Shown here: positions 19,747 to 28,470 of the stretch, one piece after another
Layout: each line of letters starts with the position of its first letter
Position numbering within the stretch: the first letter of the stretch is position 1
Translations under genes and position numbers: made by a program
Virus record (IMG/VR): IMGVR_UViG_3300021964_000217
Coordinates: 1-35,836 of that record
Direction: 5' to 3' (one strand)
DNA length: 35,836 nucleotides
Source of the DNA: a virus
Notes under the pieces: generated by a model
The model's database searches: none
Told to the model about the DNA's origin: nothing
The model's input: only the letters and a program-made list of their open reading frames with translations

Positions 19747-20013
19747 ATGAGCGCTTTCAACGGATGGATTGATACTTTCATTGAGGAGAAAGGTATTGAT
19801 ACCGCTCACAACTTTGAGTTTGACGAAGCTGGTACGTTTCACATCGTAGAAACTGCCACTGTCATTGCCTGGATGAAAAAGCTAGACGATAGCACTAAAG
19901 CTAAGATAATGCACAATTTCATTAAGATCGACTTCTTCAATGGAGATCCCATGCACTTCATGGAGTTCATAGCCAAAGGCATGGTCAAGGCAACTTACGG
20001 AGTAGCTGCCTAA
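19747..20013 (+). CDS. Conserved-type unknown protein (88 aa), first gene of early operon
   Basis: It starts at an ATG behind a strong AAGAGGAG ribosome site. The product begins MSAFNGWIDTFIEEKGID and is acidic and helical, with KAKIMHNFIKIDFFNGD and HFMEFIAKGM. Proteins with this layout are familiar to me from marine phages but I know no function. Its stop is directly joined to the next gene's ATG (TAAATG), so the two are probably translated together. Codon choice is less AT-rich than in the late genes. Confidence 0.7.
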   Translation: MSAFNGWIDTFIEEKGIDTAHNFEFDEAGTFHIVETATVIAWMKKLDDSTKAKIMHNFIKIDFFNGDPMHFMEFIAKGMVKATYGVAA

Positions 20014-20763
20014 ATGAAAAGGCTAGTTCACGGAACGCCAATCACCCCAAAAAGATTGTTACCGCAGCTCAAAGGCAAAAGCTTTTGTGTCAGTTATATG
20101 CACCCAGAGCAGCTTGCTGAGTGCATTGAGCTTGTTGGTGACAATCAGATATTGATCCTGGACAACGGAGCTTTCACCGCCTGGAAAAAGGGCATCACTC
20201 TTGATGCTGCCTGGTGGGATGGCTTCTATGCCTGGGCCAATGATGCGATGGACAAGTGTCCTAATGCAGTGTGTGTGATTCCAGACGTTATCAACGGCGA
20301 TGAAGCTAGCAACTTGCAGCTGATCGCTGATGCCATCAAAGGTGGCAAAATCAAGTATCCAGAAAGAGCAATGGCCATATGGCATATGAATGAGAGTTTT
20401 GAGCAGCTAGAAAAGTTATTCAGAATTTTCAATTTCGTAGGCTTCGGCAGCTGCGGCGAGGTTGACATTGCCAAGAACAAACCAGGCAGCGCTTACATCG
20501 CCAAGATCAAGCAAGCCTGGGCATTTATGGATTACTGGCAAAAAAAGTACGGCATTGATAAGCCTTGGATTCACATGATGAGAGGTTTGGGAGTGCTTCA
20601 CAAAATTGGTTTCGACAGTGCAGATAGCTGCAATATCGCCATGAATCACTGGAGAAACAAAAACAATGTTGTTCACCATGTAGCTCAGTTTGCAGACAGA
20701 CTAGAAGCCAAGGTTAACAACCAGGAATTGAACGAGCTTCCCTTGTTCAATGTTGCAGCTTAG
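20014..20763 (+). CDS. TGT/DpdA-like (7-deazaguanine transglycosylase-type) TIM-barrel protein (249 aa)
   Basis: Segments fit, in order, the tRNA-guanine transglycosylase superfamily: ILILDNGAFTAW (residues 46-57) at the place of the DSGG(Y/F)Q motif with Asp50; CVIPDVINGD (87-96) with Asp91; VGFGSCGEV (142-150) at the place of the G-LA-GE strand; and HMMRGLG (187-193) followed by GFDSADSC (199-206), where Asp201 or Asp204 would be the nucleophile. The zinc-binding C-terminal motif of tRNA enzymes is absent, as in the shorter phage DpdA-type enzymes that put preQ0-type bases into DNA. No queuosine-pathway gene is present, so the base would come from the host. DNA modification against restriction is the inferred role; family assignment is from motif order only. 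Confidence 0.55.
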   Translation: MKRLVHGTPITPKRLLPQLKGKSFCVSYMHPEQLAECIELVGDNQILILDNGAFTAWKKGITLDAAWWDGFYAWANDAMDKCPNAVCVIPDVINGDEASNLQLIADAIKGGKIKYPERAMAIWHMNESFEQLEKLFRIFNFVGFGSCGEVDIAKNKPGSAYIAKIKQAWAFMDYWQKKYGIDKPWIHMMRGLGVLHKIGFDSADSCNIAMNHWRNKNNVVHHVAQFADRLEAKVNNQELNELPLFNVAA

Positions 20764-20775
20764 AAAGGAGAAACT

Positions 20776-20943
20776 ATGCACGATTTTGTTTTATACCAGG
20801 TCATAAAGAAATACCAGAATCATTGGCTTATTGCTGCTGATGGTAAGTTGATGGATGGACCAGATGGGCCAGGTAGATATTTCACTACCAAAAAAGCAGC
20901 GGTTGCTTTCATCAAGAAATACTACAACAAAAACTTTAAATAA
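20776..20943 (+). CDS. Small basic unknown protein (55 aa)
   Basis: The ATG at 20776 follows an AAAGGAG ribosome site 6 bases upstream, and the frame ends at TAA 20941-20943, just before the next gene's ribosome site. The product begins MHDFVLYQVIKKYQNHWLI, continues with DGKLMDGPDGPGRYFTT and ends in a basic helix (KKAAVAFIKKYYNKNFK). It looks like a small one-domain DNA- or RNA-binding protein, but I recognise no family. Confidence 0.7.
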   Translation: MHDFVLYQVIKKYQNHWLIAADGKLMDGPDGPGRYFTTKKAAVAFIKKYYNKNFK

Positions 20944-20952
20944 GGAGAAAAT

Positions 20953-21420
20953 ATGAGCGCATTTATCGTAAACCCAGAACACATAGCAGCATTAGTTGCT
21001 TACACTCAAGCACCTACCAACAAGATGCACTGCTACAACATTCACACCAAGCAAGAGATAAACAACACTGCGAAAAACTTTTGTGATGTTCTTGCCAAGG
21101 CCAACGTCAACAGTGTTGATGCCAAGTATGGCCACAACAATGAGCATTATAGCGATGAGTATCTTGAGCATTTAATGTTGTTTCCAAATGAGTGTTTTGC
21201 TGAGCTACAAAAATTCAAAAGTTTGATGGGATTTTATGGTTGCCCAACCTTAACTGATGCAGACATCTATAACATGGCGCAATGCTTAGAATACCAAAGC
21301 TGCGAGGTTGACAACTGGACACACACTGATGCTTACTGGTTGATCCAGGCAATCAAAGGTGCAGCTGGTAGGAAGATGGCTAGCGGCGCTGCTGTTCAGT
21401 GGAATTATGAAGCTGCTTAA
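20953..21420 (+). CDS. Unknown protein (155 aa), last gene of early operon
   Basis: A TAAGGAG ribosome site precedes the ATG. The start MSAFIVNPEHIAALVAY is of a kind seen in several phage proteins of unknown function. The middle has His/Asn/Tyr-rich stretches (KYGHNNEHYSDEYLEHL) and the C-terminus has CLEYQSCEVDNWTHTDAYWLIQAIKGAA. No catalytic motif is certain. It ends 137 bases before the convergent minus-strand operon, with a shared hairpin between them. Confidence 0.7.
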   Translation: MSAFIVNPEHIAALVAYTQAPTNKMHCYNIHTKQEINNTAKNFCDVLAKANVNSVDAKYGHNNEHYSDEYLEHLMLFPNECFAELQKFKSLMGFYGCPTLTDADIYNMAQCLEYQSCEVDNWTHTDAYWLIQAIKGAAGRKMASGAAVQWNYEAA

Positions 21421-26652: not shown

Positions 26653-26893
26653 TAAAGCTTTGTTTAATCTTATTGAAACAACACAAATATTATTTGGGCC
26701 ATGTAAGCGTAAAGCATCTGAGTATGCTAGAGTTACTAGGATGGTAAAAGATGGATCTATTAATAGTATAACAGATCGTGGCAGATACTATGTGACAAGA
26801 AAAACATTAGAAGATTTTATGGGATCTGAAGAATCTTTGAATAAAGCTCTGCAAAACTTAGACAATGTTGTAGAGCTTTATCCAGATAATTAA
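26633..26893 (+). CDS. Excisionase-like small protein (86 aa)
   Basis: Residues about 25-65 (KRKASEYARVTRMVKDG, then INSITDRGRYYVTRKTLEDFM) follow the winged-helix plan of Xis/MerR-like proteins: a recognition helix, a beta-turn wing and the closing RKTLEDF helix. It overlaps the preceding gene by 20 bases and its last 4 bases overlap the integrase stop on the other strand. Place next to the integrase supports directionality control; the call is from motif shape and context. Confidence 0.55.
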   Translation: MVLTIYNKALFNLIETTQILFGPCKRKASEYARVTRMVKDGSINSITDRGRYYVTRKTLEDFMGSEESLNKALQNLDNVVELYPDN

Positions 26894-28107
26894 AAGTTGA
26901 TTTGAGCCATATCGTTTTGCAGCTTTTGCTTTCTTGCTAAGTCTTGCATCCAGTGACCATAAGTTCTTTGTGTAATAGCAATGTCACTATGGCCCATAAG
27001 ATTTGATACAGTCCAAACATCATTGCCATAAAACTCTAGCATCTTACTTGCATAGTAATGCCTTAGATCATGCCAGGTTAAGTTCTTATTACTAAGCTGC
27101 CTAACAACTTTTTGCAGCTGTTCACGCCAGGCAGATGTATTAACCATAGTATTATACTTAGTACCAAACACTAAATGTGTTTGAGCTGGTCTGCCTTGCT
27201 TTATGTAAAGCTCTTGCAGCTCCCTCATTAAAGTATTTTTAATTGGTACAGTTCTATTAGATGTCCTGGTTTTAACTCGACCTACACCGCCCTCTACTTT
27301 AATCTTTGCAGCTTTGTTAACTGTGACCTCAAACATTTTAAAATCTATATCTTCCCAGGTCAAAGCTCTTTGCTCACCAGCTCTTAATCCAGTTGAACAA
27401 GCAAACTTATATGCTAGGACGACAGACTTAGGCAAAAGCTTTTCTATATCATGTATGAAATCTGTAGATAACTTTTCCTTTTGCGGCTTGTTCTCCAGGT
27501 CATCATTGAAAGGTCTTTCAATAACAATATCAGACATAGGATTTTCTCTAATGCAGCCACAAACTTTAGCGTGTTTCATAAGTTTGTTAAACATAGATCT
27601 CATAGCAACCAAAGTCTTGTAACTTCTCTTACCTTTTTTACCAGAATTTTCTAATGCTGGGATGATGTAGGTTTTACAATGTTGTGCAGTAAGGTCGCTT
27701 ACTTTTAAATCAGCAACAGTGGTCATACCAATTTTTATTTCTAAAAAACTTTCAAAAACTTTTTTATATGAATCAAAGTATTGCGGAAGCGGCTTACCTT
27801 TTTTCATTCTGGTATATTCTTCCCAGTAAAAATGTCTTAATGGATTATTGTCTTTGATACGTTGATCCCATTCAGCTCGCATCTCATCATCTGGAAATGG
27901 ACCAAGTAAATCTTTGATTGTCCAGGTGAAACTTTCTTGTGAATGTTTATATTCTAATTTTTTAATTTTATCTAAAGCTTGTTCAGCTTCTTCCTTAGTA
28001 TGATAGAACTTTCTAGCTCCACCTACATTTCTAAGATCTAAAAGATAACAAGCTTTGCCTTGCTTTTGTTTACTCTTTTCTAAAGATATTTTTTTATTTT
28101 GTAACAT
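26890..28107 (-). CDS. int: Tyrosine integrase (405 aa)
   Basis: Catalytic residues are in the normal order: Arg242 in TGLRAGEQR, Lys279, HDLRH with His346 and Arg349, His373 in MGHSDIAITQRTYGHW and the nucleophile Tyr383. The N-terminal 60 residues are a basic arm-binding region. I start at the ATG at 28107 because GAGGTG lies 4 bases upstream of it; the ATG at 28119 would add MRCI and has no ribosome site. It is driven by the operator-bearing promoter at 28132-28160 and sits beside attP. Confidence 0.92.
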   Translation of the reverse strand: MLQNKKISLEKSKQKQGKACYLLDLRNVGGARKFYHTKEEAEQALDKIKKLEYKHSQESFTWTIKDLLGPFPDDEMRAEWDQRIKDNNPLRHFYWEEYTRMKKGKPLPQYFDSYKKVFESFLEIKIGMTTVADLKVSDLTAQHCKTYIIPALENSGKKGKRSYKTLVAMRSMFNKLMKHAKVCGCIRENPMSDIVIERPFNDDLENKPQKEKLSTDFIHDIEKLLPKSVVLAYKFACSTGLRAGEQRALTWEDIDFKMFEVTVNKAAKIKVEGGVGRVKTRTSNRTVPIKNTLMRELQELYIKQGRPAQTHLVFGTKYNTMVNTSAWREQLQKVVRQLSNKNLTWHDLRHYYASKMLEFYGNDVWTVSNLMGHSDIAITQRTYGHWMQDLARKQKLQNDMAQINF

Positions 28108-28131
28108 TATACACCTCATAGTTATATTTAT

Positions 28132-28175: not shown

Positions 28176-28470
28176 GGTGTAAACTTATTCTCGTAAGGAT
28201 TTAAAATTTACAAAAGTGACATTTACACCCAATTTACACCCAGCATACATAGGCATCAAAAAAACTCAATAAAATCAATGGGAAAAGTGGTGATCCCTAC
28301 GAGATTCGAATGAGTGAACTTCTACTTCTGTGACTATCTATGCTTCTCTAGTCTAGGCTCACCTTACCTTTGTATAATATAAGATAATTAAAGTCAACTT
28401 CAGATAGCTGTAGAGCTTACACCTAATTTACACCTAAATATATTCTAGGTGTAAATTTATTCTCGTAGGG
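28174..28470. other. attP region: tRNA 3' end with flanking arm-type repeats
   Basis: The core on the minus strand, ATTCGAATCTCGTAGGGATC plus ACCA (28311-28288), is the 3' end of a tRNA: T-loop TTCGAAT, T-stem strand CTCGT, acceptor strand AGGGATC, discriminator A and CCA. No matching 5' part is present, so it is not a tRNA gene but the attP core copy that restores the host tRNA. Arm-type sites, consensus AGGTGTAAA, flank it: 28175-28183, 28221-28240 (two, inverted), 28417-28434 (two, inverted) and 28447-28455. The tRNA identity cannot be fixed from the half. Confidence 0.75.

What the first reader, a model, noticed from the sequence alone, without database searches (positions are those of the whole stretch)
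20014..20763. TGT/DpdA-like protein without a deazaguanine synthesis pathway
Seen: motif order DNGAF, Asp91, GFGSCGEV and FDSADS fits the transglycosylase superfamily, with no zinc site. Known: phage DpdA enzymes put preQ0-type bases into DNA and protect from restriction. Here it is an early gene in a small temperate phage that has no synthesis genes, so it would use host preQ0 or another base. If true, it could explain tolerance of the dense CCWGG/GATC sites.
Basis: partly seen in the sequence, partly recalled or inferred. Interest (0 to 1): 0.6.

Follow-up and report, generated by a model that had tools for sequence, protein, structure and literature searches.

The report
Lone DpdA enzyme in marine phage
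A small marine phage carries one gene for an enzyme that swaps guanines in DNA for a vitamin-like base; the enzyme belongs to an already described family, and the evidence suggests it must borrow that base from a host that may itself have to scavenge it.

Summary
The ORF at 20014-20763 (+, 249 aa) is real, conserved and under strong purifying selection. It belongs to the TGT/DpdA superfamily: PHROG 887 E 1.7e-28; profile-profile match to the proven DpdAs of phages 9g and CAjan E 1e-9; confident (beta/alpha)8 model whose 19 best PDB matches are TGTs. Relatives include the lone DpdAs of Salmonella phages 7-11 and SEN1; published mass spectrometry found traces of dADG in phages 7-11 and MED16. 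In 12 of 38 distant metagenomic relatives, and near the gene in phages Pam5 and RHph_N3_2, lies YhhQ, a preQ0 transporter. The window has neither synthesis genes nor YhhQ. Its attP equals the end of tRNA-Glu of SAR116-type bacteria (48 of 49 bases in one genome). Of 17 genomes with that tRNA end, 15 have TGT, 11 QueF and only 3 QueC, so many would depend on salvaged precursor. The proposed benefit is not supported: GATC is at chance level, CCWGG is enriched also in sister phages without dpdA, dpdA+ phages avoid palindromes as strongly as dpdA- ones, and EcoRII cuts MED16 DNA. New member of a known kind, in an unusual host setting.

The parts
20014..20763 (+). lone DpdA/TGT-superfamily gene (249 aa)
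   Evidence: phrog_887 E 1.7e-28; hhalign to 9g/CAjan DpdA prob 96.5, E 9.7e-10; AF2 pLDDT 90.6, pTM 0.89; best VIA-align matches TGTs Z 13.9-14.8, DpdA 7ui4 Z 13.3
20161..20163 (+). codon of D50 in the DNGAF motif (counterpart of LDSGAF in 9g DpdA; proposed acid/base residue)
   Evidence: invariant in A2; aligned to 9g LDSGAF; the role is recalled from TGT enzymology
20284..20286 (+). codon of D91 (IPDV; proposed base recognition)
   Evidence: invariant in A2; role inferred
20572..20574 (+). codon of H187, counterpart of the conserved His196 of 9g DpdA
   Evidence: alignment; 9g His196 position; His196 named in PMC6884629
20623..20625 (+). codon of D204 in FDSADS (proposed nucleophile)
   Evidence: invariant in A2; aligned to 9g SCDSSS; role recalled from TGTs
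19747..20013 (+). 88-aa ORF directly upstream, phrog_6004, unknown function; kept at 91% identity in dpdA-less sister L182
20776..20943 (+). 55-aa ORF downstream, no family; lies upstream of dpdA in L044 and L191
20953..21420 (+). 155-aa ORF ending the + strand block; present also without dpdA (L182, 49%)
26890..28119 (-). integrase
   Evidence: phrog_1 E 6.3e-47
28262..28310 (-). attP core: last 23 bases of a tRNA-Glu(UUC) gene plus 26 bases downstream, 48/49 identical to SAR116-type genome locus L126

Best explanation
The gene encodes a minimal lone DpdA without a zinc motif: a DNA guanine transglycosylase of the TGT superfamily. Proposed chemistry, inferred from TGTs: D204 at the end of strand 8 attacks C1' of a deoxyguanosine, guanine leaves with help from D50, and a 7-deazaguanine base (preQ0 or preQ1, recognised through D91 and the GFGS loop) takes its place. 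The phage makes no precursor and carries no transporter, so it draws on the host's pool. The likely hosts are SAR116-type alphaproteobacteria; many of them seem unable to make preQ0 but keep QueF, TGT and QueA, so the base is probably salvaged from outside and the phage enzyme competes with the host's queuosine pathway. Modification is probably sparse, as in the related lone-DpdA phages 7-11 and MED16, not a bulk shield. Shown here: family, fold, conserved residues, selection, missing pathway, att site. Inferred: DNA as substrate, base, host, benefit.
For: PHROG 887; tblastn matches in 102 phage records, at a relaxed limit 104, among them Salmonella phage 7-11 at 2e-12, SEN1 and SW9; hhalign to 9g/CAjan DpdA E 9.7e-10, while PdxJ (the best non-TGT barrel, one sequence) and SAR116 TGTs give E 0.72 and 0.3; AF2 model; the 19 top VIA-align rows are all TGTs. 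YhhQ lies next to the dpdA-like gene in 12 of 38 distant IMG/VR relatives and in RHph_N3_2, and one gene on in Pam5. Literature: phage 7-11 has 50 dADG per million nt, CAjan loses its modification without dpdA (PMC6884629); MED16 has 354 dADG per million nt (PMC8306585). Host: attB. Of 17 candidate genomes, over the family cut-offs: TGT 15, QueA 14, QueF 11, QueC 3, YhhQ 2, QueT 0; QueE by one query protein 2.
Against: I measured no DNA modification and found none reported for this clade. Phage Orion, a lone-DpdA phage whose host cannot make preQ0, has no detectable modification; the same may hold here. The structural lead over ordinary TIM barrels is small (TGT Z 14.8, PdxJ 13.8, DpdA 7ui4 13.3; differences under 1 are ties), and plain Foldseek ranked generic barrels first. 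No Pfam or NCBIfam model matches significantly. The window clade carries no YhhQ. The candidate host loci have 29% G+C against 37% in the phage, a large gap for a phage and its host. The host genomes are single-cell or metagenome assemblies of untold completeness.
Confidence: 0.7

Rival explanations
1. A bulk anti-restriction DNA hypermodifier, which makes CCWGG and GATC sites tolerable.
For: CAjan, Rosebush and 9g reach about 27-32% of Gs, and such DNA resists many restriction enzymes (PMC6884629). CCWGG is 2.4-fold enriched in the window.
Against: CCWGG is as enriched in near relatives without dpdA: L182 2.20 and L192 2.63. Palindrome avoidance is as strong in dpdA+ as in dpdA- phages (62/311 against 56/253), including complete absence of CCGG, CGCG and GGATCC in the window. 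The two measured lone-DpdA phages related to this protein carry 0.02 and 0.13% and EcoRII, BamHI and HaeIII cut MED16 DNA. Caveat: avoidance may reflect older hosts, and the dpdA- controls infect SAR11, so host and dpdA are confounded there.
Confidence: 0.12
2. A tRNA-acting transglycosylase that changes queuosine in host tRNA during infection or lysogeny.
For: TGT fold; the best structural matches are tRNA enzymes; inferred hosts run a tRNA queuosine pathway.
Against: The profile match is to DNA-acting phage DpdA (E 9.7e-10), not to host TGTs (E 0.3). It lacks the CxCxxC motif of TGTs and shares the DpdA histidine. Phages 7-11 and MED16 have modified DNA.
Confidence: 0.1
3. A base excisionase or site-specific strand marker: the enzyme cuts out guanine, or exchanges it at a few sites, as a signal in packaging, integration or host takeover.
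For: Lone DpdAs leave only traces of product, yet the gene is under strong purifying selection and is swapped in and out as cargo.
Against: YhhQ as neighbour in relatives argues for a real exchange with a 7-deazaguanine. No site has been identified.
Confidence: 0.06

Closest known systems
Lone ('singleton') DpdA of Salmonella phages 7-11 and SEN1/SW9 and Pantoea phage MED16
   Same: Homologous along the core (tblastn 7-11 2e-12, SEN1 1e-16, SW9 3e-17); no synthesis genes (for them by the papers); small size (7-11 234 aa, SEN1 276 aa); same motifs. MED16 itself was not aligned; it is placed by PMC8306585 with SEN1 and SW9
   Different: 28-32% identity; a marine HTVC010P-type podovirus instead of enterobacterial phages; inferred host often lacks QueC
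DpdA of phages 9g and CAjan
   Same: Profile match E 9.7e-10; LDSGAF, His196 and CDSSS counterparts; no CxCxxC motif
   Different: Those are 306-317 aa and sit in clusters with FolE, QueD, QueE and QueC-like genes; separated in the tree by a very long branch (5.46 + 1.87 changes per column)
tRNA-guanine transglycosylase (1iq8, 1efz, 2ash)
   Same: (beta/alpha)8 fold, best PDB matches Z 14.3-14.8 over 213-214 residues; DSGGF/DNGAF motif
   Different: No CxCxxC zinc motif (its presence in TGTs is recalled), shorter, 6-12% identity
DpdA of solved structure 7ui4
   Same: Same fold, Z 13.3, 214 residues, rmsd 3.6
   Different: 413 residues, 13% identity, not above the background barrels in Z

Membership tests
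Phage lone DpdA (phrog_887) | sequence homology to a measured lone-DpdA phage | tested here: met
   phrog_887 1.7e-28; 7-11, SEN1 and SW9 hits; same side of the tree against 9g/CAjan (part of the inner branches weakly supported)
Phage lone DpdA (phrog_887) | no preQ0/G+ synthesis genes in the genome | tested here: met
   tblastn with 13 Que/FolE/YhhQ-type queries, no hit at E<0.01 in the window and five relatives; 9g and CAjan controls hit
DpdA | TGT-type (beta/alpha)8 barrel | tested here: met
   eight strands alternating with helices, pLDDT 90.6; TGTs are the best structural matches, though the best TGT and PdxJ differ by just Z 1.0
DpdA | paired catalytic aspartates and the conserved histidine (His196 of 9g) | tested here: met
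   D50, D204, H187 invariant in A2, aligned with 9g; catalytic roles not tested
DpdA | 7-deazaguanine in phage DNA that depends on the gene | not testable with these tools
   needs LC-MS/MS of nucleosides
tRNA-guanine transglycosylase (TGT) | CxCxxC...H zinc site after the barrel (recalled) | tested here: not met
   no CxCxxC in the 249 aa (read)
tRNA-guanine transglycosylase (TGT) | match to the TGT family models | tested here: not met
   no Pfam match at E up to 10 and no NCBIfam TGT match at E up to 1; HMMER filters may drop weak matches

The most novel reading that the evidence does not exclude
In this clade a phage DNA modification runs on a scavenged micronutrient: hosts that cannot make preQ0 import it from seawater by a transporter that is neither YhhQ nor QueT, and a lone phage DpdA diverts part of that pool from tRNA queuosine into a few chosen sites of phage DNA, as a sparse mark rather than a shield.
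Probability: 0.25. Interest if true: 0.65.

Novelty: new member of a known kind. Interest (0 to 1): 0.38.

Why it matters
Lone DpdAs are common in phages (76 of 182 viruses in PMC6884629), but what they do is open: measured levels are zero or traces. This clade offers a clean natural comparison, since sister phages whose capsid proteins are 97-98% identical to the window's differ in carrying dpdA (L191 against L182), and a likely host group that keeps the queuosine pathway without, it seems, making its precursor. That makes the question of what lone DpdAs insert, and at whose cost, testable. If the salvage reading is right, it ties a phage DNA modification to supply of a dissolved micronutrient in the sea.

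Tried and rejected
Rejected: dpdA as cause of the CCWGG enrichment. It looked strong at first (best 5-mer in 6 of 6 dpdA+ phages, z 14-21; rank 1 in 0 of 6 dpdA- Pelagibacter phages, one of which has z 5.0), but near relatives without dpdA show it too and distant dpdA+ loci mostly do not.

Rejected: Brig1-type glycosylase. I recalled a TGT link for Brig1; a term search in the paper (PMC11078745) found no mention of TGT, DpdA or transglycosylase.

Rejected: Vsr repair as cause of the CCWGG excess; CTWGG/CCWAG is not clearly depleted (0.81-1.15).

Led nowhere: Pfam, NCBIfam and PADLOC scans of the protein; phmmer against PDB; Rfam and ARAGORN on the window; att-region DNA search in seven relatives (no match); integrase search in the SAR116-type loci (no match; the ORFs of L126/L123 look chromosomal, no prophage recognised). 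Foldseek against PDB alone gave generic TIM barrels. PdxJ control: only 1 of 6 fetched loci gave a PdxJ ORF that my filter recognised, so the control is a single sequence; the TGT side was 8 sequences of low diversity.

Full report
What is there. The window is an HTVC010P-type podovirus: its capsid protein is 60-67% identical to those of Pelagibacter phages in the 15 rows listed. It has an integrase. The ORF 20014-20763 lies second in a + strand block of four small ORFs (19747-21420), next to the divergent terminase genes. The protein is conserved in 40 IMG/VR loci found with the single sequence and in 351 of 488 candidate stretches found with an alignment, of which the best 80 were kept. dN/dS against L013, L018 and L022 is 0.065, 0.043 and 0.072; for the other 12 of 15 homologues dS was saturated and no ratio could be given.

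What family. PHROG 887 ('queuine tRNA-ribosyltransferase') matches at 1.7e-28; Pfam and NCBIfam do not. tblastn finds relatives in 102 of 50,697 phage records, at the relaxed limit 104, including Salmonella phages 7-11, SEN1 and SW9. An alignment of 37 sequences (A2) keeps D50-NGAFTA, D91, H124, G145-S146, H187, R190, S202, D204 and S205 invariant. Against 9g and CAjan DpdA, hhalign gives probability 96.5 and E 9.7e-10 over 149 columns and aligns LDNGAF with LDSGAF, H187 with H196 and SADSC with SCDSS; a PdxJ control gives probability 0.1 and E 0.72, the SAR116-type TGTs 0.2 and 0.3. His196 is the histidine that PMC6884629 calls conserved in DpdA and missing in DpdA2 (section read). The AF2 model has pLDDT 90.6 and eight alternating strands. 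VIA-align ranks 19 TGT entries first (Z 13.9-14.8), then PdxJ (13.8), with DpdA 7ui4 at 13.3. So fold alone is only modest evidence, and the family call rests mainly on sequence. In the tree, 7-11 and SEN1 group within the family, far from 9g/CAjan; 25 of 42 inner branches are well supported and the 7-11 branch is long.

Link to 7-deazaguanine. In phage RHph_N3_2 the next gene is DUF165 and in Pam5 a VUT family protein lies one gene on; both names stand for the YhhQ/QPTR family (recalled; PMC11130926, passages, gives PF02592 for QPTR and names YhhQ as its old name). With these two and CAjan's 'putative preQ0 transporter' as queries, a YhhQ relative lies next to the gene in 12 of 38 distant loci (L064-L102 without L077: hits in L076, L078, L081-L085, L087, L089, L090, L092, L097), and in none of the window-clade loci. 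Several of these loci are near duplicates. The window and G001-G005 have no YhhQ and no synthesis gene.

What lone DpdAs are known to do. From PMC6884629 (sections 8, 9, 11 read): 76 phages have DpdA only; 7-11 has 50 dADG per million nt (about 0.02% of Gs), Orion, with a preQ0-less host, none; CAjan has 32% of Gs as dPreQ0 and none without dpdA. From PMC8306585 (section 10 read): MED16 has 354 dADG per million nt (about 0.13% of Gs), and EcoRII, BamHI, HaeIII, EcoRI and others cut its DNA; its nearest viral homologues are SEN1 and SW9.

Host. 28262-28310 (-) reads as the end of a tRNA gene and what follows it. The 23-base core occurs in 19 stretches of the GTDB genome collection; ARAGORN calls tRNA-Glu there in 16 of 19, 15 with anticodon TTC and 1 with CTC. 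Titles name SAR116 in 8 of 19; others are mostly unnamed alphaproteobacteria or proteobacteria, one Rickettsiales and one gammaproteobacterial bin. In L126 (SCGC AAA536-K22, an unclassified alphaproteobacterium in NCBI taxonomy) the match runs over 48 of 49 bases, in L123 over 46 of 49 at a second copy. Four relatives carry other tRNA-like ends beside their integrase. Over the curated cut-offs, the 17 genomes have TGT 15, QueA 14, QueF 11, QueC 3, YhhQ 2, QueT 0; QueE, sought with one SAR116-type protein, 2. Of the 14 without QueC, 9 have QueF and 12 have TGT. G023, the best att match, has TGT, QueA and QueF and lacks QueC, QueE, YhhQ and QueT. QueF acts on preQ0 (recalled, and PMC5372724 abstract start), so preQ0 is expected in these cells although they seem unable to make it; PMC11130926 reports that further transporter families exist (passages). 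Against this: assemblies are incomplete, completeness is not told, and 13 host-type loci have 29% G+C.

Test of the proposed benefit. Maximal-order Markov counts give GATC 179/167 and CCWGG 148/61 in the window. CCWGG is the top 5-mer in 6 of 6 dpdA+ phages of the clade. But of 22 contigs with a related capsid gene that I examined (of 80 loci returned) only 1 has dpdA, and the closest dpdA-less ones are just as enriched (L182 2.20, L186 2.28, L192 2.63; contigs of 31.8, 19.9 and 34.5 kb, the locus itself being seen in L182 and L192). In L182 the flanking ORFs remain and dpdA is replaced by small ORFs; in L192 the block is one 61-aa ORF. So dpdA is exchangeable cargo, and CCWGG enrichment belongs to the clade. 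Palindromes with O/E under 0.2: 62 of 311 tested in six dpdA+ phages, 56 of 253 in six dpdA- Pelagibacter phages; non-palindromes 38 of 14,982 and 36 of 12,236 (sums over). Restriction pressure is thus still written in dpdA+ genomes.

Literature on novelty. A search for DpdA, pelagiphage, SAR116, 7-deazaguanine and HTVC010P in pairs gave 83 papers, 15 listed; none of the listed titles reports DpdA in this group, and the one of them opened (PMC9301287, passages) speaks of preQ0 synthesis genes. I did not read the others, so a report elsewhere is possible.

Verdict. A lone DpdA, new member of a known kind, in a phage group where I found no earlier report, and with a host setting that makes an open question about lone DpdAs testable. 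The anti-restriction role proposed is not supported by the evidence at hand.

Noticed in passing
window 1-35836; G001-G005; L182, L192: CCWGG is by far the most over-represented 5-mer (O/E 2.2-3.0, z 14-21) in this phage clade, with or without dpdA, in all coding phases; it is not enriched in 13 host-type loci (0.65). Cause unknown.
   Followed up: partly
window 1-35836: CCGG and CGCG are entirely absent (13 and 25 expected), also GGATCC and CTGCAG (14 each): strong palindrome avoidance; sister phages avoid partly other sets.
   Followed up: partly
window 28262-28310: attP matches the end of tRNA-Glu(UUC) of SAR116-type bacteria, a host assignment for an uncultured HTVC010P-type temperate phage.
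   Followed up: yes
L126 1410-1432 and 7628-7702; L123 5286-5308 and 6549-6623; L127 7069-7091: Two SAR116-type genomes carry repeated tRNA-Glu 3' fragments with other genes between them, like scars of repeated integration.
   Followed up: partly
L108 1109, L109 3044, L110 3059, L111 446: Relatives of the phage carry other tRNA 3'-like ends near their integrases; three share one core, tRNA-Leu-like from recall.
   Followed up: no
G011-G025 (candidate hosts): Many SAR116-type genomes have TGT, QueA and QueF but no detectable QueC, QueE, YhhQ or QueT, which points to an unknown preQ0 importer.
   Followed up: partly
L106 4989-5741: In lambdoid coliphage PhiR5_1 a member of the same family, annotated hypothetical, sits in the left early region just after the red genes.
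   Followed up: no
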